A stretch of 64,000 nucleotides of DNA. Source: Anastatus disparis. Its lineage: Eukaryota > Arthropoda > Insecta > Hymenoptera > Eupelmidae. Shown in pieces: positions 28,401 through 64,000 of the stretch (position 1 is its first letter; each line of letters begins with the position of its first letter). The position numbers and the translations under genes are program-made. Where the stretch lies: contig JAFFSR010000218.1 in the NCBI GenBank assembly GCA_017163975.1, positions 7,009,501 to 7,073,500 on the forward strand, in the 5' to 3' direction. A model generated the notes under the pieces. It did no database searches, had not been told where the DNA came from, and was given only the letters and a program-made list of their open reading frames with translations.

Positions 28401-31400
28401 GAGGAGTTACCTTGTTTATCTTGATTTTACCACACAATTCCAGTTTACATTTCTGTTTATTTTCGTTTACAAGCTTTAGTTTAACCTTACACGTTTTTTT
28501 TCCTCTCGAGATTGTTACACCGTTTGATGCAATAATCTTCGGGGGTATTGTTACCTTTTATTTCTTTCTTTCTATCTTTTGTTTTTCGTTTTCGTTGTTA
28601 TTGTTGTTGCTGTTTGAATGCTTGTCTGCATTTTTGATAGTCGTGTTTGAATTACAAAAAAAAATAAAAGAGAAAAAAAACATAACATTCACCATATTGT
28701 ATGAATAAAATTAATCTTTTTTTACAGGATCTGTCTTACTCTGATGGTGGTCACAATTGGCGAAGTATAATCTTTTCGTTATTGGTCATTGGCGCTGTTA
28801 TTGCCGGCATTGTTACTGCCATTTATTTACTCGGGTAAGTTGACAAAAAAAACATATTACGGATGAAATTTAAAAAAAAAAAGGATATTAACGTTTAAAG
28901 TTCAGCGACACGATGAAAAATGTAAACACGTTTTGCATAAGTTTATTTAAAATATAAATCAACGTCAAATTTTCGAGGAATTTAATTATGTTAAGCGTGT
29001 ATTTTTTCGCTTGGATAAGTGAAAAAAAAAATATTGTGTATATATATTAAAAAAAATAAAAAAAAAAAAAAGATAACAATGATGAAAGTTCAGATAACAT
29101 GATAAAAATGTAAATGTCTGCTTTACATAATCGGTTTATTTTTAAAAAATGAATCAACGTTGAGTTTTTAAAGCATTAAATTTTGCTAAGTATATTTTGT
29201 GTTGCGTTTATTATCAAATTATTTTACAAAAAATGTACGATTAATAAATTAAAATTTTTTAATTGTTGAATAATAATCAAAATATTTGAGAAAAATAAAG
29301 TAAATATTATTATAGTAATATGAAAAGAGGGATTCCCATGAATTTATACAAAAAAAAGAAAATGTAGAAAAACGTTAAAAGACTGTTTATCAATGCTAAA
29401 ATTTAGTAAAAATATGGAAATAAGAAAAAATTAATGAATAGAAACGTGATAAAACAAACAATCAAAATTACAAAAACAAGTGAAAAAATCAATATTTCTT
29501 CCGACATCTGGAACAAATAATAGAATAATTACATATACTTACATTTTTCCAATACGAAATTAACTAATTTAATTTAAAGTTTCTACAGAATTATAAATTC
29601 TCTGATAATAAAAAGATAAAAGCTATTTCATACTAAGATTTTACAAATTACCTCAAGGGCATCCTCCTTTAAGAGGATATCGCATATTTCTGTCTTATTG
29701 TAAATCGAGAATTTACTTTTTTGCCAAAACCAGTAATTGTAGGCAAAAAATATAAATATTTTTTTTGGTGAAGAAAAATTAATCGTTTATTTTATCGTTT
29801 TATTTAAAAAAAAAAAATTGTTTACCCTTATCTCTATCTTTAAAGTTCTTCTCGAAAATGAAGTGATAGTATTAATTGTTTCTCATCAAAAAAAACATTG
29901 CTTTTCATTTTTTTTTATTTTATATTATTTTAATTATCACTTTTAGCAAAAAGGTAAATTATTTTATCAGAAAAAGACAGAGATATGTAACCCACCCATA
30001 ATTTTTAGTAAATCGATGCACAATATTCAAAATTGAAAAAAGTTAATATATTTTTCTACTTATTTTCTAACAAACAAACAGCTACGTCGACGAGCTCTTA
30101 TATTGGAGCGGCAGACGTTTAACACTAGAGGAATGTCTCCACGGTGATTTAACACCGACCAGACTACCACCAGCCTGGATATCGCATGATAAATTTGTTT
30201 ATCAAGCCGATGATGGCTCTCTTGCACTTCTCGATACTTCCAACAATTCAGTATCACTTTTAGTATCTAATCATACATTGGTAAGTTTGCTGTTTACCTT
30301 ATTTCTTATTTTTTTATTGTTTTTGAATTTTATTAGATTCGGTAAATGGCTTGTTAAGGGGATGTTAAAATGAGTTTTATTAATGCTGTTTAAGAGATGT
30401 TTTCCTTATAGAAAAATATTAAAATAAACCAGAAGTATAAACTTAATGCTTGATAGCTTTGGAGCTAAATGGTACAGTAAAGATAAAATTTTATAGAGCG
30501 CAGTAAAAATTTAGCATTGTTTTAAAGGACAATAAATGAGCAGATGCTTGTACTGCGGGGTCCATCAAAATTATACGATGAAATAGGAAAAAAATAAAGA
30601 TTCAATTTGAGCCTTTTTGCGTGGAAGCATCAATTTGTTGAAAAGTTATAAACAATGAAAAATTATAGGGAAAAAATATATTACGTTTCTTATATTAGCT
30701 AAATAATAATGTTGGTTTTCGTAAATTTTTAATCTGAATTTTTTATTATTTATGAATTTGAAATAATTTAATCTTTATAAACGCAAAAAAGTTGTAACTA
30801 TACTTAACCGATAATTTTGGTGGATTATAGAAGACAAACAAGTGCTCATTCCTGGTCATTTATAACAGTGCTTTAACTTTTATTTCGTAGAATGATCAAT
30901 ATTTTATCACCTATATAATGTGTAAGGAAAAACATCTTGTAGTTTCAAAAGAATTTGTGGTCCAGAATTCTGGTATTCTCCTAGTTAATATTTTTAAATG
31001 AAATGATTTTTGATTAAAATGATTGTGACTAACTACATTTTCAAATATATTTTTGAAAATCATATAAAATTGTCTGATTCAAATAAAAAACATGATTAAT
31101 AAAAGTAATTAACTTCAATTACAATATTTTCCTCACAATTAAATTTACAGCTTTGAAAATTGTAAACCTGTTTTTGACAATTGTAATGAAATAGTTGTCA
31201 CGATAATAATCGATTAAATAGCGCGCGCAAATTAATGTCATTATATCGTGCTCTAAATACAGCTTTAAGCTTAAATGAATATGATTTTACGAAAATGAGA
31301 CCGCAATTACATACAATAATTTACCAGTCCAGTCGTATATATACACACATATATATTGATTAAAACATTGGAAATCAAATTACCCGCAAGTTTAGATAAC

Positions 31401-34400
31401 GATAAATGAAATATCAAAAGATTGAATTAACAATTAAGCGCAGGAGGACCGTATTCAATTGTTGACTTACTTATGTAATATACAAGTTTTAATTATAATG
31501 AATTTATACATTGAAAATTTTAACCCTACCAGTCACAGAAACCCACTTTTTCTTTTATAGTTTTTTGGTATTAAAGCATTTTTTCACAATAAGCATGTAC
31601 TTTGTTTCTTTACAATAAACTTTCAGAATATTAATAAATAGTGAAAACTAGTATTTTTTATGAGAAAAATATGAGACTGAAAGATGTGAATTTGAAGGGG
31701 TTAAATACTTTAAATCATTAATAGCAATATTTTTCATGCAAGTCTGAAAGAGTTAAATACTTTAAAGCATTAATAACAAAAATTTTCATTAGACATGTCA
31801 AATATCATTTATCTCAAAATCTCTCACCTAATCGTATATAAAAGGCTTTGACATTTGATTCTTGAGTGCACGAGCAACAACAAGAAAAAAAGGCCATCGT
31901 AACAGTACGCGCGTGTTACGATATCGAAATAGATGAAAATTTACAATCCGTCTCTATACACGTACATAGATGATAAAACCACGATATATGCGCTGTTGTG
32001 TCGAGAAAACTTTCAAGTGAAATTGGATGAATTCTTTGCTGTACACTACACTTTTTCATCCATTGTTTTTTCAACCTCTTCCTCTCTCTCTTTTTTTTTC
32101 ACTGAAAGTATCGATTTACATTGATTCTAATTGTAATTGAATGACGATGTTGATTGATTATCAAAGAAAAAAACTGTATTTAGGATAAATGTAATATAAA
32201 ATTTTTTAATTTTCAGTTTCAATGCGTAGATTTCATTCTACTTTTTGTAAAAATATATTGAAACAATATTTTTAATAGCAATTTTTTATTATTATTATTA
32301 GAATATTTTTATTTTAATTATTCTTTAACTTCTTTTTTTATATAGAATATTCATTATCGGTTTTCCAATACTTTAGTTACAATAAAAATTTAATTAAAAT
32401 TTTCACGTCTAAGAAAAATTTAATTTAATTGCACAAATTTAATAACCAAATTAAAAATAAAAACTATAATTATAATAATTAAAATATTTACAATGAAATG
32501 ATAATGATATTTATTACAAATGATTCCAATGTAACGTACACCTTAAATATCACATAATCTCTTAATTTGAAAAGCAAACGAATTTAATTTAACGAATTCG
32601 AATCGAATTTATACATCATTGCATTAAATCAGCCCGAAAATTAATACTTATTACTTTTCATTGTATCACATACATTTATCACTAATGATTCTCATTGAGA
32701 TAATAAAATCATTGATTAACCTATACGTTTAATTAAGGGCAAATTAACGTAGCGAAAAAAATTGATTGATAATAAATCATCGATATTTATTCATCAATGA
32801 AAATTAAGATATAACGTTGATGTTTATTTATAACCTTATACGCGCGCATGAATATAAACATTAATTATCATGTTTTGCATAAATTAAGGGCGTTAATCAA
32901 TTCATCGCTGTCAGGTAATTTTCAATAAACAACACTTAAATACATATTATGCCTCGTTTACTCAAAAAAAGGAGGAAAAAAAAAGTGTAATCGCTTACAC
33001 GGCTGATGCGAGAGCGAGTAAAGGAGTAATGTAGCTTTCAAAGTATATAGACACGTATATATACGCTACCACATATTCTTGTATATCCCGGAGGGCTTAA
33101 ATTTGAAATTGCTATTTCGCTTAGGTTGCATCTATGGCCTCGAGTGTTATACATCGACTTTCTATATACCCTTTAAAACTCTGTGTATGACTTAGCTCTC
33201 GTACGCGCATACACGGTAATACGTATAATGTTACACGTATAGATATGATAGATGTACGTCTATGATTAGACTCATACTAATGAAGATTGTTATACGTGTA
33301 CACATGCTTGATATTTGCAGGCGGTAATTAATTACTTTTTCAATGTATTTTTATTGCATGCTTGGTACTTTTATAAATTAAAAAATTATTGCTCTGAAGG
33401 TTTTTTATAGTACATAGTGATAAAGGAAACAAAACTGAAAAAAAATGTGGATGATTTTTTTAATATTTAATATACTACATTTTTCGTTATTTATATATTA
33501 AGATCCCAAATTATGAATTGATTGAAATACTTTATTCTGTTTATAAATAAATATATAGAAAATAATCATGCTTAGAGAAATATTTGTATTAAAAATTACA
33601 TAATTTATAGTAACGTTGTCACAGACTGCCATCACGGCCAAAACAAATTTTACAATTTATTATTGTAAGTTATTCGTAGAGCACATTGAGTTTGAGTAAT
33701 TTGATTTTATTATTTTAAATGTGATTTTAATGCAAATGTCCCTATCCACTGCATCGAAGGCTGCCTTAAGATCCACGGAAACTATATAAATGTTATTCTT
33801 CCTTACTTTTGCCATTTGCATTATGTGATTTTTTTTTTTTTTTTTTTTTCATCCCTATGCATTTTGTACATGTTTGCGTAAAATAGAAAAAAATGGAAAA
33901 TATTTGCAATAGCAAATAACTTGCATACAAATTTTGGAGCAAATCCATCAAATGGTTTTCGTAAAATAAAAAAAAAATAAAAAATGAAAATTTTTTTCAA
34001 AAATTTCAAAATGCTTCAAAATTAAAACTACGCTAAGAAAACCAATTTCAATAGCTTCCCCTAAGTTAGACAAAAAAATAAATTATTTGCAAAATTTGAA
34101 ACAAATCCATCGAATAGTTTTCAAGATTCAATTGGCTAAATGAATACACACAAATACAGAAATTTTCTGAAAACCACTTTTTTCGACTCCCTAAGTCCAA
34201 ATATGCATTAATGAAAATATAGAAAAAAATTTTTTTTTATCGATACAATGCTTTCTCTGCGAGAAAGCAAAAAGAAAAGACAATAATCCCATCCATGCTT
34301 ACGTACCCATACATATAATGATCCTCGAAATAACAAGCATCACAAAATTCTCGTCATGCCGAATCACACATGTACACCACCTTCAGTGAGTTTCATTTTC

Positions 34401-34552
34401 ATTCTCTCATGTATCCACTGTGTTCGCCTCTTTTACCTTCCAAGCGAATTAGACCGGACGCCCATTATACGTATATACATAACCTATATCTATGTATATA
34501 CCCAAAGCATAGTTTTCGATGGCAAAATGCACTTGCATTCTTCTGTGCATTG

Positions 34553-34606
<54 letters not shown>

Positions 34607-37600
34607 CTATTTCATATATATATGTGAAATAGTTAGATATGCGTGTATTAGGCTATATCCGCGTATACGTCGTCGCATAAGCCGATGTTTGAAAGGATTA
34701 ATTTTCGACGAAGGCTTTTGAACTATGTATATACACGCTGGCATATATGTCTATACTTGGCTTAACCTATAAAGAGAGATGCTATGGATATGATATGTAG
34801 GCGTATTGAATACACGCGCTAATAATTTTAGAAGTAAATATTTTACTTACTTTTTCTTGAAATCGATTATGCGTTAAATTGATAATTAAGTTTGTCTAAT
34901 TATAGGTTATTTTCATATTAACTCGCTTATCTTGTTTATCTATAATTGATAAATTTATATTTAATAATATATAATCAATGATTTATTATTTTTTCTAATT
35001 TATTATTTTTCATAAGAGCTTGTAATAAATTTAATGTTTACAATATGTTTTCAATCTAATAAGTTGAGCTTATAAATATTTTTAATACTCTATGATTGGT
35101 TAATTGCTTATTATTTTAGATATATATTAACACTGTAGGTAATAATTTTCAGCGTTTAAATTATCCGTGTAATTCTTGTCAAGTTATAATTTAAAGTAAG
35201 TTGAACTTGCCGTAGAGGCGCGATCGCGCCTCTTGATCTATTTTTTAATAATTTTAATTATTAAGTTATAAGTATACGCCGTCGAGGTGCTGCCGCGCCT
35301 CTTCATACCTATGTAAAAAGTTTTTTGTTTTAAAAAGGAATATTTAAAAAAAAAGTATTTAATACAGATAAAAAGAATGCCTAGTAACCGTTGACATTTA
35401 TATGATTTTTGTATATTAGTGTACGTAGTATTAAAAGTTTTTACTGTACAAAAATAATTATCAAAAATTCTAAAAAGTATTAATTTTTTAATTAATATAT
35501 TTTTGCAATGAAAAAGGTAAAAAAGACGAACAATTCTCATTTTATGAGCATAAAAATATCAGCATATCGAACAACACTGACAAACAAAGAATACGAAAAA
35601 ACGGATGTAATTCCCGTGATAAAATTTGCTTCTCATCTCTTATATGAATTACGAGTTGGAATCTGACTTGAATTTTACACTTTTTTTCTCTCTCTCTCTC
35701 TCTTTCTCACGTATATACATATATTTTATGCACAAATAATAAAAAGAAGAGAATGAAAAAAAAAGAGAACGAATAGATCATTTTTCCGCAATTTTCCACT
35801 CGATAGGCCTCGACTATCTTGCGCGTTTCTGCGGACGATTGATCTCGATGGGGAAAAAAAGGGTAAAAAAAAAATATAAAGTGAAAAGAACAGAAAAGAG
35901 AATTGAAGAGAGGTTCAATAGATGTAAAAAGCTTTTATTGAGATGAATAATGAAAAATAAAAAAAGGAAAATATCGAAGCGAGATGCAAGTAATTATGTG
36001 AGTTCATGATTTTTCTACCCCGATATTGGATAATAAATGCCGTTTATTGTCGTCGTTATTATAGACAAATAACTTTTCTAATGGTTATGTGTTTACCCTG
36101 AAATTTTAACGAACCAACCTTTTTTTTACGTTTCAATTTCATTGTTTTATTAATATTTAGTTAATAATGATTCATATCCTTTGTTTGTCCAGCTGTCATT
36201 TCAAACACAAATGATAACCGTGATTATTGTTTTTTTTTTTAAAGCTGTTCATTTACGAAATAAATCACTCGTTTACTCGATTATCGTAAAAAAGCACTTC
36301 ATAAAAATTGAAGAACTCGCAGCATAAAAACCGTCGTCAAAAGAAATCACGCAATTATTTTTCTTTTCCCCCTTTCTTTTTTGCCGTCGTTACTTTTACG
36401 AGCTTTCATTAATCGAACAAGCATATTTTTCTTTTACCCGGACTACCGTGAGACGCTCGTATTATAAACTCTTAAAAATTAATAAGTAATGTTTTATATT
36501 GTTTTTTTTTCAACACGATAATATATAAAAATTTATCATTGACTTGATACACATTTATATTATATTTTAAAATTTATCGAATCTATCAAATGAAAATAAA
36601 TGACTATTCGGATAAATGGTTTTGTATACGCTATACAATTTTTTTTATTTTCAATTTCTCTAAAAATTTTATCTTTTTTTCTATGAATCTGACAAACGAA
36701 GCAACTTGTTTGTTTGTTCAGTCGTAAGCGTATTGCTCACTTGGCAGAATCGGCCTGAATAATAGTGATAAAACGTCGCTTTTAAAAGAATATTAAATCA
36801 TTGCGCTTATATCACTTTTTTTTCATAACACAGAAGAAGAAACTGCACTTTGTAAAAATCATGATTATTTTTTGTGAAAACGAAAATTTTGTTAATTTAT
36901 GCACATATCATTTTAAAATTAAAGCCATGTGTGCAGCTTTATATTATTTGACTTTATTAAATATATTCTTTAAAATTTCATTAATTCCAAAACTACATTG
37001 TGTGACTAGGGAATAAAGTCGCATATTTCTCCCGAGAGAGGAGTTTGCGACCCGAGTGAGCGAAGCAAAGCGAGGAGAGTAAATATTCAAGGGAGAAGTA
37101 GGCTTTATAATCCTGAGTTGATGCTTTATTTCTACCGCAATGACAGTTACTGTAAAAACTTAAAAAAAGCGGGCTCAATGAACAAAAATTTAAATGGAAA
37201 TTTAAAAATTTTAATATATTGATAATTATCATTGGAATTAATATTTTTTAAATTATTTTTATGAATTTATTTGGTTATTCATAACAAATTTTAGTAACGT
37301 CAGTGTCACTTTTTAAGTTAATAAAGTAATTATTATAATGAAGATAGTATTAATTATGGTATAATCGTTGTGTCTACATTTAATTTGTAAATATATTCAC
37401 AAAAAATAATAATCAATTATTATAAAAAAAATCTTAAACATAATTTTGTATGATACTAATATTTAATGTTCATAACAATTTTAATTATAAAATGGAATGT
37501 AACAATCAACCCATTAGTAACAACTTTGGTTTCAGCAAACTAAATTAGAAATACCGAAATTTACAGTACTGGCCCTTCAAAATTTACAATGTTTGAGTTG

Positions 37601-38861
37601 TATACTGAGTGTTCACACTTCAACGTACTTGAATTCTAGAATAAAGTATTTATGTTGATCTTTGGAGAATCTTTTGTTATTGAAATTGTTTAACGCTCGA
37701 AATTCTACACTTTACGATGGTAGTTTGTAGCATACATTAAACCATGATTTGAGGTTATATAAATCAATTTATTTTTTATTCATGTTGGTATATTTAATAA
37801 ACTTTTCTATTACATTCAAATATGAGATAAAAAGTTTCCTAAATTCTACTCAATTTTTTAAGAGTTTGTTCGTTTTATTAAACGATTTTCAAACGTTTAT
37901 ATGTAATAACTTGAATATAACAACAAAAATTCTATAACGTAATTTTGTTATGATTTTTATTACTTTTTATGATAAATTTCACTATGAAGAGTCGTAGTTT
38001 TTCGTGGATTTTGTTCCTTTGAAATAATGTGCGGTTAAATCCACGTTATGATGCGGAAAAATGATTCTATTGTATGCGTACTTTAACAGTTCACCATAAC
38101 CTCTAAATTTAACTTTAAAATTTAATAATAAAACTACGAGATAAAAGTGTAAATTATTAATTATTATAATTTTAGATTTCAAAATAGAAAATATATCTAT
38201 TTTTGTTGTACATACCAGACTAATAGGTGATTAACTAAAATACTTTTTTGTCATTCTAACCTCAAAATTACAACTTTAATATGATTATTCGGCTCTTATG
38301 GAATAAAATACATTTCGCAACGGATGTGTAAAGCCTTTTTTATGAAACTTGTTATAGCCCTTGCCTCAGGCTCGGGCTGCAAAATTTTCGTTTCGTAAAT
38401 AAAGCCTTTCAATATTCGTAATGAAAACAAAATTTACTATAAAAAATTAAAAAAACAGCTATTTATATTGATACAAAAGTACAATAATTAAAATGAACCA
38501 AAACGTTACTAGTTTAACGAGTTTCGGAAACAAAATATTCAAAAATAAAACTTCAACATCATATCAATACATCAAAAAAATATTCAAACTCAAAATTCAG
38601 TTCCCGGAAAAATACTATTTCTTTCAATTTTTTTACAATCCAAACTAATAGCAAAATCTAACAGAACAATATGTGCAAATATATCTATTTCTGTCTGCCT
38701 TGCACTTTATCTTATCAATAAAAACTTACACAACTATATGTTATATGCCAAATGAAAAAAAGTAGCGATTACGCCCAACCGAGCACAAGTGAAGCGCTTT
38801 CACGTATACCGAATAGTGGAAACCTTCCAAAATCCTCATTCCTTTCTTTTATTATATATAC

Positions 38862-38908
<47 letters not shown>

Positions 38909-38979
38909 CCACACCCACCCACACATCCAGCCACATACACGCACTTGTAAAAAAATGTGTAAAAACATATAAGTACATG

Positions 38980-39030
<51 letters not shown>

Positions 39031-42000
39031 TCACTTACATAGCAACATTTATATGTAGTTGTTAAAATTCGAGGCCAGTAACAGAAAAATGCGCTATTCA
39101 CGCCGCTGCTCACGCGCATTGATCCACGCGCTGGTTATAAAACGTATATAGCTGCCCGGCAACACCATCGAGAGCTTTTTTTTTGGCGCGTAAGTTTTAT
39201 GTTACTACAACTGCATTCGCTCTCTTTTTTTTTTGTTTTTGAACTTCCTTTGAATGAGAACGAAGGATTTATTGTTATTGGAGAGAGAATCATTGTTATG
39301 GGATTAAAGTAATACATTAGTTTTTTTAACTTTTTTTTAACAAGAATCATTGAGAAATTAGATATTTACGTTTGAAGTAATGTTTGTGAGTTGCAGTATA
39401 CAATTTATAAGAATATAAAGTAGTGAAAAAAAAGAAAAGTTTTTTTCATTGAATAAATTATATTGCAATAATGTAAACAATTTTTTAATATTAAGATTCT
39501 TTTTTTTTCAAATAGCTGATATTTATAAATTAAATATTTTACATTAAAATTAATTTTCTTCTTAGCATAAGAGAACTTTTAATCTATTGCGGTCTATAGT
39601 CTTTTAAGAAAATATTACGTTTAGGAGAAAGTCCCTCCTAAGTGAAGTCCAAAATCATGAGTTAGGTAGAATATTAACATCACATCTTTTTCTTTATATT
39701 TTTATAAAATTATTTATTTGCAATCCAAATAATTGACATTTTTTCTATTAGCACAAAAAATGATATTTAATTTCTTTATATTTTAAAAACAAAAATTTCA
39801 AAATCTGGAGTATAATTTTCTTTGTTTATTTACTGTTTAACCAATTTAAAATCATATGTTTTAATAGAAACCCGAAGATATGTCTACGTATTCAATACTA
39901 CTCGTTTATTCTTTCCTTCTATTTCAGTTACAGTTGTTTTTATTAATTAAACATTTTGTTCAAAGATATCCTTATATGACATTCACATCTTGGGTGCCCT
40001 TCCCAAAAGTAACCATTTTCACAACTCTTTACTGATCCAAACGGACACAAATATTTACAATAATCATAATTAGTTGCACAAAGCCAAGGCCATATGACAA
40101 CCCTAAGGCATTTGATTTCTGTAAACAAATATGATAAATAATTATAAATATTTTTATAATTAAATATAATAATAATGAATAAATATGTCACAATGATTTC
40201 CAGTATTAATTACCTTGAACGACTATCAAGAGAATAAGACAAGTAAAAATAAAAATACGTTCCATTTTGCTTATACAAAGTGTTTTGAAAAGTCTTTTTT
40301 CGATATTTTGATCTTAAGTAACGAATAATTGAACTGACTGCTGATTGTTACTTCGGATGTTTATATACACCACTTGATAATCATTATCTATTTTTATATT
40401 GGCGGCGAAGATTCGTATATGAAATTAAAAAATTATTCGATTTGTCTTATCGTCATAAAATATGCTGAATATTATCGAGAACGACGCAAAAACTAAACTG
40501 CAGAATAATCAAATAAATCTGGAATTCCCGAATAGCTGATTGATAAGTTGACGATTTTTATCGATTTTCGCTTCGATGAAGTTTCAAAAACGCTTTCCTC
40601 GAAACAGTGTTTTTCAAATTCATATACAACGTACAGGGCCGTTCATAATCTTTTGACCTTCAAAAATTTATACGTTATATTATAAGTTCAAATTTATACG
40701 TTACTAAAATAAAGTTCATAATAAATGAAAAAATTTTCATTTAATTTACAAAATTATAAAAATAATTCATTGAAAGCTCATTCTAAGGACTAAAAAAAGT
40801 GCTTCTTTTATTTGTGGTTTTCCTCCTTTTTTTTAGCCATAGAGGCACTGTCCGTTAATTTTTCATTCAACTCTTCCGTCTCTCTTTTCTATTTCGTCTC
40901 TATATTTTTTTTTCTTTTGTGTTATATACGTGTATCTCGTTTAACTGCCGACCGGCTGCTGGCTTCAAGGCCGAAAGAAAAAGAATTGCTGCTCGTGATT
41001 TTTAACGCCAAAGAGAAGAAGAAGAAAAAAAAGGAAAGAAAAGAAGAAGGTAAAAGCTCAACACCGATTTCTCTCTTTTATACCGTTGAACCACAGTACA
41101 GACTGCTACTTTTACTTCTACTACTGCTTCTTCTTCTTCTTTTCTTGGCTTTTACAAATTTATTCGTCGCATTAGACGTTCGTTGTACCTTTGGGAGTGC
41201 GTTTTTATTTATTTTCTTTGTTCTTAGCTTGTTTTAGAGAAAGAAATGAACGAGGAAATGTAAAACTTAATGAAAGCGTGGGAGAGTAAGAAAAATCTAA
41301 TGTAAATGTTTAGGGTTTTTTAAGACTTTCATTAACTTCTTTTACTTTCACGTGAATGAAATATTGCAGTACTGCTTAATATTGAAATATTTATTTGGAA
41401 TGAATTTTTTGTTTTAAAATATTGTAAAGTTATTAAAATGATAGAAATTTTCAGTTTATGAATAGATACTACTACTAAAAATTATGGTTACAAAGAAAAA
41501 TTCTTTATAATTTTATTACGTATCATCTGTTAAAATGAATAATTTGAAAAAATTTGTTTCATTACAACTTTTATGTAATAGAGTTAAAATTTTATGAAAA
41601 ATATATTCTTTTTAATTAATATTTTTTTCAATAGCATAGTTTTTCATTGATTTACTGTTTTTCGTTGAAATATTTTTCTATTAATAACAGTTGAATAGAC
41701 AAAAGTTATTAATTAAATATTTTTAAATGAAATGTAGATTATAAAAGAATTCTTTTTTCGTTTCACTGCACAATCGTCAGTGTAATTTTAAAATTAGTCA
41801 ATATTATTTCTAAATTAGTCAATATTATTTTTTGAAGCCAATGGCAGGAAATTATGAATACGAACTTGAAAGATTTATATCGATTAAAAAAATTGTATCC
41901 ATTTAAATTATAAAACATATTTTCAGTGTGTTGAGGAGCTTAAGTTAAAAAAATATTTAGCACGAAATTTCATTACGACAAAAAATGTTAATTATTACAA

Positions 42001-45000
42001 AAAATAAAAGAATAAGAGAATTTAAAATTAGCAAAAATTACTAAAATGTCTCCAAAATTTAAACTATGCCGTGGAAAACATTTATAAGCAGCTTCTCCTT
42101 TGTACATAATTGCCATAATTCCGGCTCGTAAATAATTGAATTAAACTTGGGTGCTAAATTTGGAACAAACACACAGAGTAGTTTCAAATAGTAACTCAGT
42201 AACGAAATGCACACCCACGCATCACTTTTTTGTACTCTCTCAGTCAAAATATATATTTATATTTAGAAACTGAAAAAATAGAAATAATAATTTTTTATCG
42301 ATACAACGTTTTTTATTTTATGAGAAAACAAGTTAAAAATAATTTAATAGTTATACATATTAATTGAATGCAAATCTAATCTAAATATTTTATTTTTAAT
42401 TTACAGAAAAATATATACCTGAATGGGGTAAGAATTGTTATTTGTTAAGAAAAAGAAGTAAAATTATGTACTTCTTATTATTTCAGATGAATATGACTAC
42501 AATGGAATAAGTGAAAGAATTTGAAAAAAAATAATTTTGAGTATAATTTATAATTTGAATTTCATTGATCAATTGTAATCGATAGCAGCACTGAATATGC
42601 CAAAATTATTATATGTATATGTTTGTTCGATTAGCATTAAATAAATATGTACAAAATTTAAATAATGTTTTTCTTTAAATATAGATTAAATGCATCTTAA
42701 TTATAATTTTCTTGCACCAAAAACTAGCTGATGCAATTGAAAATCTTTATGTAAATCAATTATTTTATAAAGTCTCAACAAATTAATAAAAATAGTTAAA
42801 TGCATATTTCGAGTTTTGTTTTATTCTAGTTTGAGCGTAAACGCATGCGTATGTACATTAAAAATGATTTAAACCAAGGGAAAAATATATTTTTTAAACT
42901 GATTAAGTAAAATGCTTGAAAAAAAATTAGTACCATATGGATAACTGAAGCAAATTGCAAGTATAACATCAAATTTTTATGTATTTGTAGATTAATTTTT
43001 ACAGCGTGTTTCCGCAAACGACTATAAAAGAGTCTTATCAATTCACGATAACATCCTTTGTTGTTGTTTTTCTACGCAATTAAAGATAAAGCATTTTTAA
43101 ATATTGACAAACATGAAAAATATTGCGTACATTGTTTTAATAATCAAGCTTATTTAATATAATCTACCTAAACTAAATATTTCACAGTTAAAAGTTTAAC
43201 TCTCTCATTCCATATTTACATCATCCAAAAATGTCCTTTTACAAAGAATTTAATCCAGGCCAATTGTGTAACAGCTTCCAATCAAGCTCTCTTTTTTTTA
43301 TTCTTTTTACTACCTGCTCTCTCATCTTATACTGAAAATAGTCTGTGGACTAGTAGTTGGCCGCAATCATTTTTCCACTTCGTAACACAGCTATTAACGA
43401 TTACAGTGTCCGTTGAAAATAAAGAAAGAAAGAAAAAAAAAAAGAAAATCGAGAATAATAGAAAAAAAAAGAAAATCGAGAATAATAGAAAAAAGGACAC
43501 GTTTGCCAAGTTTTTATTTAAAAGAAAAGAAAAAATTGAAGTCAAACATTTCTCTTCCACGTGAGCGGTAAATACGTATGAAATCTCATGTCTTTTTCTT
43601 CTTTTACTTGCAGAGGCAGCTAAATGTACAGGGTTACCAATGCAGTACGGACTTGCGTTACGTACTCTTCAAACATAATGTCAAGCCAGTGAGTAAACGC
43701 AGTATTCGAGTTCGCTTAATTATAAGCTTAAATGCATGAATAAAAATACAAGGTGTACTCGTATTTTTTCATTAAGGAAGATAAATTAATCAATTCACGC
43801 ATAGATTCAGAATTTATAAATGAAAAATTATTATTTCTAAATAAATAAAAAAAAAGAATAAAAAAATCAACTCATTAATTACATCGTTCTTAATATATTT
43901 GAAAATCAATTTTTAGACACGAGCGCTACACGAAGTGCCTTATATTTTTATTTAGTTTATGATTAATTATAATTTTTCAAATTCATCATAATTTTAGAGC
44001 GTGTTGTCAATCATTTCGTGCATCTTCTCTCTCTATTCCGGGAGATTAAAAAATATTATAACAAATATTCAAATAAATTCAAATAAATTCAAATATTTAT
44101 CATTTGAATAATTATGACTGCCGTTATTGAAAATTACGGTTAATAAAAACTACATAAATTATTGTTTATTCGAATTTAAATTATAAACTTTGAAATAGTA
44201 AGCTTCAAAAAAGACATCCAAAGCATGCACAAAATAATTTACAGCATATCGCGTGCCAATAATAAATACACATATACGCGCGCGCAAATTAGTGTATTTA
44301 TATACGTGTTTAACTAAAAGTTTTGCTTTTTCAGGTGTTCCGGAATACGTTCACTGCTCACTACACCGTTTACGATGTCACGAACGAGTAAGTTTCAAAT
44401 CAACAAACGTTATAGTTTTATAAATTTATAATTATATATACTTTTATGAGTCTTTATTCCATAAATTATTGACGATAATTTACAAAACAACAAATAACAC
44501 TTTTAGTACGTACATTACTAGTTTTATACAGATAGACTTTATGGAATTAACATAATTTTTGCCTTTGATTTTCTACACACTGAGAAAAAAGCAGCAAGTT
44601 CTATTTTGTACCTAACTAGATTCTCCTTGTCAGAGTTAAATAACACGTTTTCACTAATTTATTTAGCCCTATTTAATATTAAAGTCATTAATGATAATTT
44701 TTAGAGTTAAATTCAGGAGAATAATATTATAATAAAAGTAATTTATAAATTATATGTCAAAATTATTCTCAAATTCAAATATTTATCGTTACTGAGAATC
44801 ATAACCGCACTTTGACCACATCAATATTAATACTACTACATAGTTAATTTCAATTTAAAATTCATTAAAAATTTAATTCATTTGATATCTTTTTAATATG
44901 TTAAGAGAAATATTATTAACAATTTAGTTTTTGGATATAATTACATAAACTTACAAAAATTTGTTACTGAATTTGCCAAACAGAATCTATTTAGATAAAA

Positions 45001-51000: not shown

Positions 51001-53258
51001 GGGTCCGGGACTACCACTCGCTGCTCTTCATTCCATAAAGACGAATGAATTCGTCCGAATCCTCTACGATACGAGGATTCAGAGGGCGGAATTGCTGTCA
51101 CAGCTTGCTCTTCCCAAAAGACAAAGTTTTGAGGTAATGTGAAATTTATTAAATAAAGCTTTCCAAAAGTTAAAGTTTTGAATTAAATTGCAACGAATAA
51201 TCACTTATTCAATTCTAGCGCAAAGAAACCTGCGTTTTTTTACTACTATTCTGTTTTTATCTATATTGAATTTATAATTAGTATTTATATTAAATTAATA
51301 AAAAATAACGAAAATTCATATTGCGAAATCTGAATAATATTTAAAGTTTACTCTAAGTTTTAAATCTGACATTTGAATATTCTCTTGATACATATTCAAA
51401 TGAATTCACAAACATAAATTTTTATTAAGTTTTAGCAGTTTCGAAATCTTCCATCAAAATAATATTACTACTTTTTATGAATGACGATATCAACAGGTAC
51501 CACTACCACAAGGTTGGCGAGCTCAGGTTCAGTTACTTTTACCTCCTTCGTGGCGTGAGGAACTGCGTGACGCTGCATTTCCGGTACTAGTCGAAGTAAA
51601 TGGCAGACCTGGCAGTGCTTCAGTGACGGATCAATTCAGAATTGACTGGGGTACTTATATGTCTAGTCATAATGATGTTGTATACGTGAGACTAGATGTA
51701 AGAGGTGCTCGTGGTCAAGGCAAACGTGCCCTATATCGACGCATCGGTGGCGTTGAAATCCAAGATCAAGTAACGGTACTTAGGCATTTATTGGATACCC
51801 TAAAGTACCTAGATGAATCACGAGTTGGTGTCTGGGGTTGGGGTTATGGAGGATATGTCACCTCTATGGTACTCGGTAGTCAACAGAACGTGTTTAAGTG
51901 CGGTGTTGCCGTCAATCCAATCGCTGATTGGCTATATTATAGTAAGTCATAATGTTACATTTATTTAAAAAATAATTTGTATTACATTATACAAATTAAC
52001 AGAGGAATTCTTTTTTCTAATTCAAGCCACTACTAGTGTATTCTTAAGAAGATATAACGCATTACAGAATCCTACTTTATCAATTGATAAGCAATTACAA
52101 TTTTGTAAACAAAGTAAAAATAATATTAGAAAACAAAATACGTTGGCTTGGAATGAGATCTATTAATATTATTCAATTTAACTTTCAAGCAAATCCATAC
52201 ATTAGACTCAGAGAATTTTGGATTTCCAAATAAGATAACATTTTTTAAGTCCCAATAAGTCACTGCTTCAACAATATTATTATTCAAATTACAAAAACAC
52301 AAAATTCTTCGAGATTAATGAATGAATTTGATTAAAAGTTTAACTGAATAATATTTATAGATCACATTACAAGCTTATGTATTTAGTTTTCTAAAAATAT
52401 TGCTTTAATTGTAATTATTAATGTAACTGAATATTGACCGATAAGGTAGGATATTTCAGTGTAGTTACAATGCTTTAATTTATATCCTCCCAAATTATAA
52501 TTTTTATCGAATCTTCTAAATACTTTATTTCTCCTTTAGATTCGGCTTTCACGGAGCGCGTATTAGGCTTACCAGCTGAAAATTACAAAGGCTACGTGGA
52601 AGCTGACCTTACACAACGAGCAAGACTGGTGCCTAGCCACAGCTTATATTTACTACACGGTATGGCAGATCTCTCGGCGCCTTATACACATGGCATGTCC
52701 TTCGCCAAATCCCTTACAGATTCTGGCATCATTTTTAGATATCAGGTTTGTCTTTCATCTTGTTACGTTTAGAAATAGGTCAATACGGCATGTGGATAAT
52801 TTCAAATTTTAAAATTACTTATGACTTCGTTCAAAAATGGTTTCTAATGGAGAACAAATTCAAATCCTATTGATTATATAAATCAATTTTAAAGCATTGC
52901 CCAAATTGGATTATGGTATTGATAGTTTTATTTTGAATCCCAATTAGATCAAACGAATTGTAATTGAGATCAAATTTAAATCTAATTAGATCGATTTTAA
53001 AATATTGCTTTAATCGGATTATAATACTGACTTATTCCGTTTGAGCAAAAATATCACTTTGGTATACCAAATTAATAAAGTGATTTCGAAAATCCATTTG
53101 ACTTTCCTTTTCTTTTTGAATGATAACTTTTTAAATGATACGAACTTATTTTCCAGAGTTACGCGAATGAAGATCACGCTCTAAAAGGAGTACTAGAGCA
53201 CGCCTATCGTTCCATGGAGGACTTCCTTGCCGAGTGCCTCGCTCTGGATGCCTCCTAG
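19351..53258 (+). CDS. DPP10: Inactive dipeptidyl peptidase 10/6-like protein (whole gene, 13 coding exons in the longest form)
   Basis: Joined coding exons: 19351-19443, 28728-28834, 30082-30280, 43614-43688, 44335-44387, 46729-47026, 47883-48121, 49076-49394, 50629-50807, 50881-51133, 51497-51941, 52540-52745, 53157-53258. Every junction is GT-AG, phases agree throughout, and the joined frame is open for 855 codons. Layout: cytoplasmic N-terminus (1-43), one transmembrane helix (about 44-67), an eight-blade propeller region (about 70-600), and an alpha/beta-hydrolase domain (about 600-855). The S9B signatures are present: the double Glu after PDWLYQ (248-249), catalytic Asp in HGMAD (797) and His in EDH (829). 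The nucleophile motif reads GWGYGGY, so Ser is replaced by Gly at 721, as in vertebrate DPP10. By family knowledge such proteins are accessory subunits of Kv4 channels; here the partner would be Shal (inference). Active DPP4 is excluded by the missing Ser; choosing DPP10 over DPP6 rests mainly on Gly at that position. Confidence 0.9.
20391..20511 (-). mobile_element. tRNA-derived SINE, copy 1
   Basis: The minus strand carries a perfect pol III A box TAGCTCAGTCGG (20492-20503) and a B box GAGTTCGACTCC (20449-20460) at tRNA-like spacing. The acceptor stem does not pair, so it is not a working tRNA. It shares its full length, including about 45 bases beyond the tRNA part, with the copy at 60395-60517. 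Lies in the intron between candidate first exons a and b. Confidence 0.75.
20520..20845. mobile_element. MITE of the CCTACCTTATCG family, left-truncated copy
   Basis: Right end GTCAGATAAAGGAGGATC and the internal block AATTCTCCGTAACTA match the copies at 24505-24885 and 52050-52475. The left terminal arm is missing; the homology stops close to the SINE at 20511. Confidence 0.55.
21086..21163 (+). CDS. DPP10: Candidate alternative first exon b of the DPP10-like gene
   Basis: ATG at 21086 opens 26 codons ([13 protein letters not shown]...) that run in phase 0 to a GTGAGT donor at 21164. Joining to 28728 keeps the transmembrane exon in frame. A pyrimidine-rich tract ending TTTTTAAATAG lies just before it (to 21080), so the exon could be spliced from a noncoding leader. 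Reading through from that acceptor in phase 0 hits a stop, so the exon can only supply its own start. The tail is Ser-rich and hydrophilic and unlike exon a. The base before the donor is T rather than G, which lowers certainty. No transcript evidence is available. Confidence 0.55.
22961..23249. mobile_element. TTAA-flanked piggyBac-like MITE
   Basis: TTAA at 22957-22960 and 23250-23253; termini CCCTTTGATGCTGG and, inverted, CCCTTTAATGCCCAGC. 289 bp, noncoding. Confidence 0.7.
23882..24105. mobile_element. TTAA-flanked piggyBac-like MITE, related termini
   Basis: TTAA at 23878-23881 and 24106-24109; termini CCCTTAAACAGCTCACT and inverted CCCTTAAACTGCACTAT. 224 bp. Contains a (TA)n run at about 23985-24000. 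Confidence 0.7.
24505..24885. mobile_element. MITE of the CCTACCTTATCG family, full copy
   Basis: Long inverted termini: CCTACCTTATCGGCTAATAT at 24526, with the inverse ending near 24860 and homology extending some 20 bases further out on both sides. Related to 20520-20845 and 52050-52475. Confidence 0.65.
25255..25293 (+). CDS. DPP10: Candidate alternative first exon c of the DPP10-like gene
   Basis: A short open stretch of 13 codons, [13 protein letters not shown], ends in phase 0 at GAG before a good donor GTAAGA (25294). Joined to 28728 it gives an 837-residue protein with an acidic, proline-containing tail. The upstream 100 bases are less AT-rich than their surroundings, but I see no clear TATA box. 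The strong donor and the phase match to the transmembrane exon are the support. Confidence 0.6.
25294..28727. other. Intron before the transmembrane exon
   Basis: Fold-back element at 25812. Pyrimidine-rich stretches at about 26850-27260. No further phase-0 first exon that I would defend. Confidence 0.5.
25812..25990. mobile_element. Fold-back element (AAAATTGACCAT termini)
   Basis: AAATTGACCATATCTTG...TTTATGGTCAACATAAGTT on the left is the inverse of AACTTATGTCGACCATGAAT...ACATGGTCAATTTT on the right, with a loop of about 70 bases. Confidence 0.55.
28728..28834 (+). CDS. DPP10: DPP10-like exon 2: signal-anchor transmembrane helix
   Basis: Acceptor TTTTTTACAG, donor GTAAGT. Starts in phase 0 and ends with two bases of a Gly codon. 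Encodes [12 protein letters not shown] and then an uninterrupted hydrophobic segment ([16 protein letters not shown]...YLLG) of about 23 residues with no Lys or Arg. Arg precedes it, consistent with a type II signal anchor. In DPP6/DPP10 the tail and this helix are the parts that contact the Kv4 channel (family knowledge). All three candidate first exons join here. Confidence 0.92.
29323..29670. mobile_element. MITE with GGAGGATGCCC termini, copy 1
   Basis: Ends in AGGGCATCCTCCTTT. The body matches the element at 48163-48490 along its length and in the same direction, with blocks such as AAAATTACAAAAA(C/T)AAGTGA and TTTCCCAATACGAA-like words. Lies in the intron after the transmembrane exon. 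Confidence 0.65.
30082..30280 (+). CDS. DPP10: DPP10-like exon 3: start of the beta-propeller domain
   Basis: Acceptor AACAAACAG, donor GTAAGT. Completes Gly67 and runs to residue 133. Contains the family-typical start of the ectodomain ([18 protein letters not shown]) and the W-I-S-...-Y-Q pattern of propeller blade 1 ([19 protein letters not shown]). It ends in a predicted N-glycosylation site (NHT). The following intron is the longest of the gene, 13,333 bases. Confidence 0.93.
31524..31700. mobile_element. Possible TTAA-flanked element, degraded
   Basis: TTAACCCTACC on the left and GGGGTTAA on the right. The termini resemble the other CCCTT elements, but internal inversion is poor. A further partial duplication (GTTAAATACTTTAAAKCATTAATA) follows to 31790. 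Confidence 0.35.
31835..31867 (+). promoter_or_regulatory. Intronic TATA/Inr-like core promoter
   Basis: TATATAAAAGG at 31835-31845 and an initiator-like TTGAGT with A at 31865, 30 bases apart. A perfect 9-bp stem hairpin (ATCGTAACA...TGTTACGAT, about 31898-31924) and a 63-codon ORF from 31933 follow. The ORF has no recognisable domain. A cryptic promoter or a noncoding RNA start are both possible. Confidence 0.3.
33736..33825 (-). pseudogene. LINE reverse-transcriptase relic
   Basis: The minus strand encodes [20 protein letters not shown] followed by DAVDRD. This is the RT motif A region of non-LTR retrotransposons, pattern (V/I)D(F/L)KKAFDxV(D/P)R, with the catalytic Asp. About 30 codons are open; A-runs and unrelated sequence lie on both sides. 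Far too short to be active. Confidence 0.7.
34553..34636. repeat. (TA)n microsatellite with adjoining palindrome
   Basis: About 50 bases of TA followed by TAACTATTTCATATATATAT then GTGAAATAGTTA, an 11-bp stem palindrome. Confidence 0.8.
35205..35302. repeat. Tandem palindromic GAGGCGC units
   Basis: The perfect 18-bp palindrome GAGGCGCGATCGCGCCTC (35215-35232) and the degenerate GAGGTGCTGCCGCGCCTC (35284-35301) lie 69 bases apart with similar flanks. A third version, GAGGCACTATCACGCCTC, is at 3219-3236. Confidence 0.6.
37003..37117. repeat. Hairpin element with GAGCGAAGC loop
   Basis: CTAGGGAATAAAGTCGCATA followed by TTTCTCCC pairs imperfectly with GGGAGAAGTAGGCTTTATAA then TCCTGAG. The loop includes CGAGTGAGCGAAGCAAAGCG. 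Same architecture as the hairpin at 18694. Confidence 0.45.
38871..39028. repeat. Two (TA)n microsatellites around a CCCACA-rich spacer
   Basis: TA runs at 38871-38905 and about 38985-39028, separated by a strand-biased CACCCACACCCACCCACAC segment. Confidence 0.8.
39905..39910 (-). terminator. Polyadenylation signal of the nested peptide gene
   Basis: AATAAA on the minus strand, about 33 bases after the stop codon (39945-39943). A second AATAAA overlaps the stop itself (39944-39939). Confidence 0.6.
39943..40265 (-). CDS. Small secreted cysteine-rich peptide, defensin-like pattern; nested gene
   Basis: Two exons on the minus strand: 40265-40214 and 40118-39943, with intron GTAATT...TTTACAG of 95 bases; the split codon is restored as Glu. 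Product is 75 aa. Residues 1-17 ([17 protein letters not shown]) form a signal peptide. The remaining 58 residues contain seven cysteines. The last six are spaced C-x6-C-x3-C-x7-C-x11-C-x-C, i.e. the C-xxx-C ... C-x-C signature of the cysteine-stabilised alpha-beta fold shared by defensins and related peptides; an extra Cys lies ten residues before them. The gene has its own promoter and polyadenylation signals and lies antisense in the longest intron of the DPP10-like gene. I do not recognise a named family. Fold and antimicrobial role are inferred from pattern and promoter; a venom-type or signalling peptide is the alternative. The last eleven residues after the CxC are an unusual tail. Confidence 0.72.
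40332..40337 (-). promoter_or_regulatory. Initiator (TCAGTT) of the nested peptide gene
   Basis: Matches the arthropod initiator TCAGT(T/C) on the minus strand, with predicted +1 at 40335. It gives a 69-base 5' UTR before the ATG at 40265. Spacing to the TATA box is canonical. Confidence 0.75.
40361..40367 (-). promoter_or_regulatory. TATA box of the nested peptide gene
   Basis: TATATAA on the minus strand, 32 bases before the A of the initiator at 40335. Two GATA-type motifs (40375-40380 and 40384-40389) sit immediately upstream. Confidence 0.75.
40520..40529 (-). promoter_or_regulatory. Dorsal/NF-kB-type site upstream of the nested peptide gene
   Basis: GGGAATTCCA on the minus strand is a perfect match to the Dorsal consensus GGGWWWWCCM, about 185 bases before the predicted start. 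A TGATAAG motif on the plus strand lies 11 bases further upstream (40541-40547). kB sites close to GATA sites are a hallmark of insect antimicrobial peptide promoters (known for Drosophila cecropin genes). Confidence 0.6.
40541..40547 (+). promoter_or_regulatory. GATA motif next to the kB site
   Basis: TGATAAG fits WGATAR. Significant only because of its position next to the kB site upstream of the nested peptide gene; alone it would be expected by chance. Confidence 0.4.
43430..43495. repeat. Tandem duplication of 31-32 bp
   Basis: AAAGAAAATCGAGAATAATAG with its A-tract occurs twice in a row. Confidence 0.7.
43614..43688 (+). CDS. DPP10: DPP10-like exon 4
   Basis: Acceptor TTACTTGCAG, donor GTGAGT; exactly 25 codons, phase 0 at both ends. 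[19 protein letters not shown] corresponds to the DPP4 family segment in which a blade strand follows 'S.D...IL'. Because it is phase-symmetric, skipping it would keep the frame. Confidence 0.88.
44335..44387 (+). CDS. DPP10: DPP10-like exon 5
   Basis: Acceptor TGCTTTTTCAG, donor GTAAGT; 53 bases ending in phase 2. [17 protein letters not shown] matches the conserved family strand of the type '(W/F)R.S(Y/F)TA.Y.(I/V)YD'. Small exon, recognised by splice sites and family pattern. Confidence 0.9.
44579..45034. mobile_element. Fold-back MITE with arms of about 60 bp
   Basis: ACTGAGAAAAAAGCAGCAAG at the left end is the inverse of CTTGCTGTTTTTTTTCTAAA then TCAGT at the right. The arms continue through an AGATTCT block. 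456 bp in the intron after exon 5. Confidence 0.6.
45428..45888. mobile_element. CCCTTT-terminated piggyBac-like MITE hosting a second element
   Basis: Left CCCTTTCAGACCTCAATTT, right inverted CCCTTTTAGACTCAATCT; TTAA at 45889-45892 but TCAA on the left. It contains the 143-bp hairpin element at 45652-45794. Confidence 0.55.
45652..45794. mobile_element. Near-perfect hairpin element nested in a MITE
   Basis: ATATGGTCAATGTCCCAATT and TGCTACTC at the left pair with GAGTAGCA and AATTGGGACATTGACCATAT at the right. A second paired block (ACCTATTACTAGCCG...) lies inside. Arms of about 60 bp. Confidence 0.65.
46729..47026 (+). CDS. DPP10: DPP10-like exon 6: blade with the double-Glu motif
   Basis: Acceptor CTCTTGTATAG, donor GTAGAT. 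Residues 176-275. Contains LQYAAWLGN, then NDIYVK, and [12 protein letters not shown]. The last holds the Glu-Glu pair which in active DPP4 binds the substrate amino terminus (DPP4 Glu205/206). The pair is kept here although the nucleophile is lost. The opposite strand also looks open over 46602-46811 but is a shadow of this exon. Confidence 0.94.
47145..47400. mobile_element. Fold-back element with arms of about 85 bp
   Basis: ACGCATGAAAATTAATG... through ATATTTTACTGTGATTTTAT matches the reverse complement of the segment ending at CATTTTCATGCGT near 47385. Lies between exons 6 and 7. Confidence 0.55.
47883..48121 (+). CDS. DPP10: DPP10-like exon 7
   Basis: Acceptor CCAAAACTTAG, donor GTGAGT; residues 276-354, ends phase 2. 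Carries the family pattern 'R.Y(P/T)PG..NP.V..W(M/V)VD' ([20 protein letters not shown]). Three Asn-X-Ser/Thr sites are clustered (NVT, NAT, NVT) and suggest a glycosylated loop of the propeller. Confidence 0.93.
48163..48490. mobile_element. MITE with GGAGGATGCCC termini, copy 2
   Basis: Starts AAAGGAGGATGCCCACGGGC and ends GAGCATCCTCTTT. Its left end is better preserved than that of the copy at 29323-29670. It inserted about 40 bases after a DPP10-like donor site (48122). Confidence 0.65.
49076..49394 (+). CDS. DPP10: DPP10-like exon 8
   Basis: Acceptor TCAATTACAG, donor GTAGGA; residues 355-461. [27 protein letters not shown] matches the DPP4-family blade 'Y...V.W......V...W..R.QN', followed by the 'C......W......' segment. 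The donor is followed within 40 bases by a tandem AT-rich repeat. Confidence 0.93.
49423..49560. repeat. Tandem ATAATATTACT array
   Basis: About 12 degenerate units of 11-12 bases starting 29 bases after the exon 8 end (49394). Later units vary (ATCAT, ACCGTG). Confidence 0.75.
49729..49779. repeat. Perfect 19-bp inverted repeat
   Basis: GAACATATTGATTGATCTT (49729-49747) and its exact reverse complement (49761-49779), 13-base loop. Confidence 0.7.
49788..49895. mobile_element. 108-bp MITE with CCCTGGTAGAAAT termini and TA duplication
   Basis: CCCTGGTAGAAATT on the left and AAATTTCTACCAGGG on the right, flanked by TA on both sides. TA duplication suggests a Tc1/mariner-type origin. Very compact. 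Confidence 0.65.
50113..50492. mobile_element. Fold-back MITE with ATTACGCATCTAG termini
   Basis: GTATATTACGCATCTAGGGA (50118) is the inverse of CTAGATGCGTAATATGC (50471-50487); the arms run about 33 bases. Interior includes GC-richer sequence. Confidence 0.55.
50629..50807 (+). CDS. DPP10: DPP10-like exon 9
   Basis: Acceptor GTTCTCATAG, donor GTACAA; residues 462-520. [20 protein letters not shown]...LYVV and the C-x2-C pair (LCITCDI) match the family cysteine-rich blade that also packs against the hydrolase domain. Followed by the shortest intron of the gene (73 bases). Confidence 0.92.
50881..51133 (+). CDS. DPP10: DPP10-like exon 10
   Basis: Acceptor TTATATTTAG, donor GTAATG; residues 521-605. 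Family features: the 'C....AS.S' type strand ([10 protein letters not shown]), '[12 protein letters not shown]', and the linker to the hydrolase domain (ALPKRQSFE). Confidence 0.92.
51497..51941 (+). CDS. DPP10: DPP10-like exon 11: hydrolase core with Ser-to-Gly change at the nucleophile
   Basis: Acceptor ATATCAACAG, donor GTAAGT; residues 606-753. Typical S9B core: 'LLLPPSW', '[11 protein letters not shown]', '[14 protein letters not shown]', '[13 protein letters not shown]', then [18 protein letters not shown]. The nucleophile-elbow consensus is G-W-S-Y-G-G-Y; here the Ser codon is GGT (51842-51844), one transition away from AGT. The rest of the elbow is intact, so this looks like a fixed functional loss and not general decay. 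Confidence 0.96.
52050..52475. mobile_element. MITE of the CCTACCTTATCG family, copy in the last-but-two intron
   Basis: Left CCTACTTTATCAATTGATAA (52071), right TGACCGATAAGGTAGG (to 52450). Shares the AAAATTCTYCGARA(C/T)TA interior block with the other copies. It occupies most of the intron 51942-52539. Confidence 0.65.
52540..52745 (+). CDS. DPP10: DPP10-like exon 12: catalytic Asp region
   Basis: Acceptor TTCTCCTTTAG, donor GTTTGT; residues 754-822. Contains '[12 protein letters not shown]', matching the family pattern 'DS.YTER.(M/L)GLP', and '[16 protein letters not shown]', where Asp797 is the triad Asp position. Confidence 0.94.
52858..53035. repeat. Imperfect direct repeat, period about 117 bp
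   Basis: ATTTTAAAGCATTGCCCAAATTGGATTATG-type block (from 52885) recurs as ATTTTAAAATATTGCTTTAA then TCGGATTATA, inside the last intron. Confidence 0.5.
53157..53258 (+). CDS. DPP10: DPP10-like exon 13: catalytic His region and stop
   Basis: Acceptor TTATTTTCCAG; 33 codons and TAG at 53256-53258. [20 protein letters not shown] matches the family 'Y.DE.H......HLY..M..F' end; the triad His is at 829. The C-terminus (AECLALDAS) has the usual family length. Confidence 0.94.
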   Translation, partial: SYANEDHALKGVLEHAYRSMEDFLAECLALDAS

Positions 53259-63864: not shown

Positions 63865-64000
63865 CTACAAATAAATTAAATATTTAGTGCATGAGGGATT
63901 CAATGAAATTTGTTATAAAAATTAAAAATAAAAACAGATTAAATTAATAGAATTAAATTTTATACTAAAAAATATAATAATCTAAACAACTGAAATTGTC

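What the first reader, a model, noticed from the sequence alone, without database searches (positions are those of the whole stretch)
39900..40550. Complete hidden gene for a defensin-like secreted peptide, nested antisense in a DPP10-like intron
Seen: signal peptide exon, 95-base intron with good splice sites, restored split codon, seven-cysteine mature part with C-x6-C-x3-C-x7-C-x11-C-x-C, TATA and TCAGTT at canonical distance, polyadenylation signal. The longest single open frame covers only the second exon and misses the signal peptide, so gene finders could overlook it. Known: C-xxx-C plus C-x-C is the core of the CSab fold. The x11 spacing and the 11-residue tail are unusual, so this may be a new family.
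Basis: partly seen in the sequence, partly recalled or inferred. Interest (0 to 1): 0.88.

Follow-up and report, generated by a model that had tools for sequence, protein, structure and literature searches.

The report
Hidden defensin-like peptide gene in wasp
DNA most likely from a chalcid wasp carries, backwards inside an intron of another gene, a small spliced gene that probably makes a secreted defensin-like peptide with unusual cysteine spacing and no relative found in the searches made.

Summary
Minus strand 40265-39943 encodes a two-exon, 75-residue peptide with a signal-like start and a 95-base GT-AG phase 1 intron. It is the only such model in the window; 0 of 300 shuffled windows gave one. 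It lies antisense in intron 30281-43613 of a DPP10-like inactive peptidase gene, whose protein is closest to Nasonia (83%) and three other chalcids. Correction: the best predicted cleavage follows Cys21, so the mature peptide probably has six cysteines, not seven. They fit the general CS-alpha-beta framework, but two spacings (x7, x11) fall outside the published insect-defensin motif and the GXC gamma-core is absent. No credible relative was found in Pfam, NCBIfam, PDB sequences or one protein-database search. Single-sequence folds are too weak to prove the fold. The window's only GGGWWWWCCM (Dorsal-type) site lies about 190 bases upstream. Gene architecture resembles the nasonins of Nasonia. 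Best reading: an unannotated, lineage-restricted defensin-like immune effector, a new variant of a known kind. Expression, fold and function are untested.

The parts
40520..40529 (-). GGGAATTCCA, Dorsal-type GGGWWWWCCM site, 185-194 bases upstream of the presumed start of transcription
   Evidence: only match to GGGWWWWCCM on either strand of the window; 0.58 expected per shuffled window, 0.05 for GGGAATTCC; picked after I had seen it; consensus from PMC3009591
40361..40367 (-). TATA box TATATAA
   Evidence: first base 32 before the initiator A
40332..40337 (-). initiator TCAGTT, presumed start at A40335
   Evidence: TATA-initiator pairs are not rare in number (0.99 per shuffled window, 2 in the real one) but this one is in place
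40266..40335 (-). 5' untranslated region, 70 nt (inferred)
   Evidence: between the initiator A and the ATG
40214..40265 (-). exon 1 coding part: [17 protein letters not shown] plus first base of codon 18
40119..40213 (-). 95-nt GT-AG intron, phase 1, G+C 13.7%
   Evidence: 3.1% of 95-nt stretches of the window are as poor in G+C
39943..40118 (-). exon 2 coding part: end of the signal sequence (to Cys21), six-cysteine domain, 11-residue tail, stop
39939..39944 (-). first AATAAA, overlapping the stop codon
39905..39910 (-). second AATAAA, the likelier polyadenylation signal
30281..43613 (+). intron of the DPP10-like host gene that holds the peptide gene on the other strand
   Evidence: tblastn of the Nasonia DPP10 protein: blocks 30080-30280 and 43614-43724 flank it; ends approximate, taken from the alignment

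Best explanation
A real, unannotated two-exon gene of a chalcidoid wasp encodes a pre-peptide of 75 residues. Residues 1-21 are a signal peptide; the mature peptide of about 54 residues has three disulfides in the defensin (CS-alpha-beta) arrangement: a helix with CxxxC pinned to a strand with CxC. Transcription starts from its own TATA/initiator promoter on the strand opposite DPP10, probably raised by Toll signalling through a Dorsal-type site, and the peptide is secreted into haemolymph or a gland. It acts as a small immune effector on microbes, through the aromatic 11-residue loop ([11 protein letters not shown]) and the cationic tail (HIRISLNK), which carries the net positive charge. Shown: gene structure, signal-like exon, cysteine framework, position, Dorsal-type site. 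Inferred: transcription, fold, cleavage, induction, antimicrobial action.
For: Complete gene model, 0 of 300 shuffles match. The framework C..CX3C..C..CX1C is what PMC5234102 calls a prerequisite for the CS-alpha-beta fold. The 45-residue core model (residues 23-67) has helix-strand-strand order: a helix through Cys38 ending one residue before Cys42, a strand with Cys50 and a strand with Cys62-x-Cys64. [quoted passage not shown]). The only GGGWWWWCCM of the window lies about 190 bases upstream. The host protein puts the window among chalcidoids, and in the chalcid Nasonia defensin-like peptides are unusually diverse: 18 of 34 homology-annotated and 6 of 14 putative novel AMPs (PMC3873987 passages). 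Charge at pH 7 of residues 22-75 is +1.9, without the tail -0.2.
Against: No credible relative by sequence. Models are of low confidence and Foldseek gave nothing at E <= 0.001; in the core model the helix also runs through Cys31, which a defensin would not show (inference). Spacings x7 and x11 lie outside the insect-defensin motif and the GXC gamma-core is missing. Charge is modest. No expression data. Of the nasonins only -1, -2 and -3 were induced by infection, and others may have non-immune functions (PMC3873987). Of five kappaB-type patterns counted, only GGGAATTCC and GGGWWWWCCM match here, and they are one site; GGGRNWYYCC and GGGRNYYYCC have no match in the window and GGRRNNYYCC none near the gene. 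By eye the site fits neither the Dif/Relish consensus of PMC3009591 nor the Relish consensus of PMC9496462. GATA sites are common here (3.3 per kb).
Confidence: 0.55

Rival explanations
1. A secreted defensin-fold peptide used on the host insect rather than on microbes: a component of venom or of the egg or larval secretion that damps host melanisation or acts on ion channels.
For: Many chalcidoid wasps are parasitoids (abstract of PMC3818564 in the listing). The nasonin group, which has a similar gene architecture, includes nasonin-3, reported to lower phenoloxidase activity (PMC11818254, figure legend seen; the original, Tian et al. 2010, was not read). PMC5116183 states that for a six-cysteine peptide of typical insect spacing the pattern cannot tell a toxin from an antimicrobial peptide.
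Against: A Dorsal-type site upstream fits immune regulation better. No venom data; no sequence relative of any kind was found.
Confidence: 0.22
2. A real secreted small cysteine-rich peptide, but not of the CS-alpha-beta fold and not defensive (for example a reproductive or signalling peptide).
For: Two spacings and the gamma-core depart from insect defensins; no fold match.
Against: Both invariant motifs CxxxC and CxC are present in the right order, and the low-confidence core model shows helix-strand-strand.
Confidence: 0.13
3. A chance open structure or a dead or very young gene that makes no peptide.
For: No relative and no expression evidence, so selection cannot be tested; ORFs with six cysteines within 45 residues are not rare in themselves (1.0 per shuffle).
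Against: 0 of 300 shuffles gave the whole model; exon/intron G+C contrast 29% and 34% against 14%; promoter elements and AATAAA in place.
Confidence: 0.1

Closest known systems
Nasonins (defensin-like peptides of Nasonia vitripennis, PMC2853521)
   Same: chalcidoid wasp; no propeptide; phase 1 intron near the end of the signal peptide (told for nasonin-1 and part of nasonin-2); n-loop shorter than in classical insect defensins; defensin framework
   Different: Refolded synthetic nasonin-1 weighs 3.55 kDa, the present mature peptide 6.49 kDa by computation
Insect defensins (C-X5-16-C-X3-C-X9-10-C-X4-7-C-X1-C, PMC3234185)
   Same: x6, x3 and the last x1 fit
   Different: x7 in place of 9-10, x11 in place of 4-7; no GXC; no Pfam defensin match
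Honeybee and Nasonia defensin 1 (royalisin, navidefensin1)
   Same: a C-terminal extension beyond CxC
   Different: those have a propeptide and a longer n-loop; here neither
DPP10/DPP6-like inactive peptidases (host gene)
   Same: host protein 83% identical to Nasonia inactive DPP10; GWGYGG in the window and in Nasonia in place of the catalytic GWSYGG (consensus recalled)
   Different: it is only the surrounding gene, on the other strand

Membership tests
CS-alpha-beta (defensin/scorpion-toxin-like) superfamily | cysteine framework C..CX3C..C..CX1C | tested here: met
   C31, C38-x3-C42, C50, C62-x-C64; framework from PMC5234102
CS-alpha-beta (defensin/scorpion-toxin-like) superfamily | helix plus antiparallel sheet fold | tested here: inconclusive
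CS-alpha-beta (defensin/scorpion-toxin-like) superfamily | disulfides 1-4, 2-5, 3-6 | not testable with these tools
   needs peptide chemistry or a structure
Insect defensins | spacing C-X5-16-C-X3-C-X9-10-C-X4-7-C-X1-C | tested here: not met
   observed 6, 3, 7, 11, 1; the 7 and the 11 fall outside
Insect defensins | GXC gamma-core motif | tested here: not met
   reads VKSC at Cys50; motif described in PMC5116183
Insect defensins | match to a curated defensin profile | tested here: not met
   Pfam at E <= 10, on the 82-aa ORF, gave only Fer4_5 at E 3.9, below its cut-off; NCBIfam none (a library for bacteria and archaea); HMMER filters drop weak matches
Nasonins | no propeptide | tested here: met
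   best predicted cleavage after Cys21, nine residues before the first framework cysteine (matrix recalled); nasonin statement
Nasonins | phase 1 intron after the signal peptide | tested here: met
   intron splits codon 18, just before the predicted cleavage site; [quoted passage not shown]
Nasonins | n-loop shorter than in classical insect defensins | tested here: met
   six residues; PMC2853521
Nasonins | sequence similarity to nasonins | tested here: inconclusive
   no protein sharing three 5-residue words in a collection that holds Nasonia proteins; nasonin sequences themselves were not obtained
Immune-inducible effectors | induction on challenge | not testable with these tools
   only a Dorsal-type site is seen

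The most novel reading that the evidence does not exclude
The founder of a separate, chalcid-restricted CS-alpha-beta family in which the usual gamma-core is replaced by an 11-residue aromatic loop, kept as a self-contained nested gene with its own Dorsal-responsive promoter inside the intron of a gene for an auxiliary subunit of potassium channels. Its transcription against DPP10 could also couple an immune response to lower DPP10 expression.
Probability: 0.25. Interest if true: 0.6.

Novelty: new variant of a known kind. Interest (0 to 1): 0.42.

Why it matters
Small spliced secreted peptides of fast-evolving insects are easily missed by annotation, and here homology search failed while gene anatomy succeeded. 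If expressed, it extends the already unusual diversity of defensin-like peptides in chalcid wasps with spacings outside the published insect-defensin motif, and gives a clean test of how far the CS-alpha-beta scaffold tolerates a long loop in place of the gamma-core.

Tried and rejected
A scan of viral contigs gave 5 pattern matches and no relative. PDB sequences gave three matches, at E 0.072, 0.075 and 1.9, to unrelated proteins. tblastn inside the window found no second copy: apart from the gene itself the best match has E 2.3 (list cut). The repeat finder on 39400-41100 showed only short or imperfect, mostly AT-rich repeats.

Rejected: GATA-like sites (40389, 40546, 40380) as evidence, since WGATAR occurs 3.3 times per kb in the window.

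Literature: nine library searches (one search found no paper). The listings showed no paper on this peptide, but no search could name it. Seen: PMC5116183 (outline, sections 5 and 6), PMC2853521 (outline, sections 8-11 and 20, passages), PMC3308954 (outline); passages only of PMC3873987, PMC11818254, PMC3234185, PMC5234102, PMC10531655, PMC13340311, PMC3009591, PMC4742911, PMC9496462 and PMC5506212.

Full report
What is there. On the minus strand, an ATG at 40265 opens a 52-base coding exon for [17 protein letters not shown], joined across a 95-base GT-AG intron (40213-40119, phase 1, codon 18 split G|AA) to exon 2 (40118-39943). The product is 75 residues. TATATAA (40367-40361), TCAGTT (40337-40332) and two AATAAA (39944-39939, 39910-39905) are present. 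G+C is 29% and 34% in the exons against 14% in the intron; 3.1% of 95-base stretches of the window are as poor as the intron, and 20% of 176-base stretches as rich as exon 2.

Is it more than chance? I scanned both strands for a signal-like first exon, a GT-AG intron and a second exon with C..CxxxC..C..CxC. One model was found in the window, this one; 0 of 300 order-3 Markov shuffles gave any, and the cysteine pattern alone averaged 0.01 per shuffle. The thresholds were set after the feature was known. Weaker parts are not rare: any ORF with six cysteines within 45 residues averages 1.0 per shuffle (2 in the real window), and TATA-initiator pairs 0.99 per shuffle (2 in the real window).

Where it lies. 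The Nasonia DPP10 protein aligns in 13 blocks along the plus strand from 19351 to 53255; blocks 30080-30280 and 43614-43724 leave a 13.3-kb intron that holds the peptide gene on the opposite strand. GWGYGG stands at the active-site position in the window and in Nasonia, so the host is of the inactive, DPP6/DPP10 kind (catalytic consensus recalled). The best four rows for the host protein are Nasonia (83%), Phymastichus (79%), Trichogramma (75%) and Eretmocerus (76%), all chalcidoids (classification recalled), ahead of the other listed Hymenoptera at 73% or less among rows covering 99% of the query; one partial Trichomalopsis protein reaches 77% over 69% of the query (best 120 of 237 listed). 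The window is therefore most likely from a chalcidoid wasp.

What the peptide is. The mature peptide then starts at Leu22 and has six cysteines, 54 residues, computed mass 6.49 kDa and charge +1.9, nearly all of it from the tail (core -0.2). The framework is the one said to be a prerequisite of the CS-alpha-beta fold (PMC5234102 passages). The single-sequence model of residues 23-67 has a helix through Cys31 and Cys38 that ends one residue before Cys42, a strand with Cys50 and a strand with Cys62-x-Cys64. The order suits the fold, but confidence is low and no library match supports it.

How it most likely works. The only GGGWWWWCCM in the window, GGGAATTCCA, lies 185-194 bases upstream of the presumed start; that consensus is quoted for Dorsal in PMC3009591. 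I noticed the site first and counted afterwards; two other kappaB patterns have no match in the window and a third none near the gene, and by eye it does not fit the quoted Relish consensuses. With a signal peptide and defensin framework, the simplest reading is a secreted immune effector, probably under Toll control. [quoted passage not shown] Nasonin-1 was active on two Gram-negative bacteria and not on Gram-positive ones or fungi, while nasonin-3 is reported to lower phenoloxidase activity (PMC11818254), which keeps a host-directed role open. Of the nasonins only -1, -2 and -3 were induced by infection.

What it is not shown to be. It fails the published insect-defensin spacing at two loops, has no GXC, and matches no curated family. 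Similarity to nasonins could not be measured. No protein in a collection that does hold many annotated insect proteins shares three 5-residue words with it, so no close relative is annotated there; distant ones cannot be excluded. Searches of the window's own assembly did not complete (11 calls, listed under steps to tell).

Verdict. A real and probably functional hidden gene, most likely a lineage-restricted defensin-like peptide: a new variant of a known kind, moderately interesting. Expression, fold and function remain to be tested.

Noticed in passing
51485-51952 (+): The DPP10-like host has GWGYGG at the active-site position, Gly for the catalytic Ser, as in Nasonia.
   Followed up: partly
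63503-63883 (-): An ORF matches the Spo11/topoisomerase 6A Toprim domain, E 3.5e-29.
   Followed up: no
38853-38905, 38980-39028 and 34556-34623: TA dinucleotide arrays in the same DPP10 intron, two of them about 1 kb from the peptide gene.
   Followed up: no
62116-62424 (+): A 102-residue serine- and arginine-rich open frame without a Pfam match at E 0.01.
   Followed up: no
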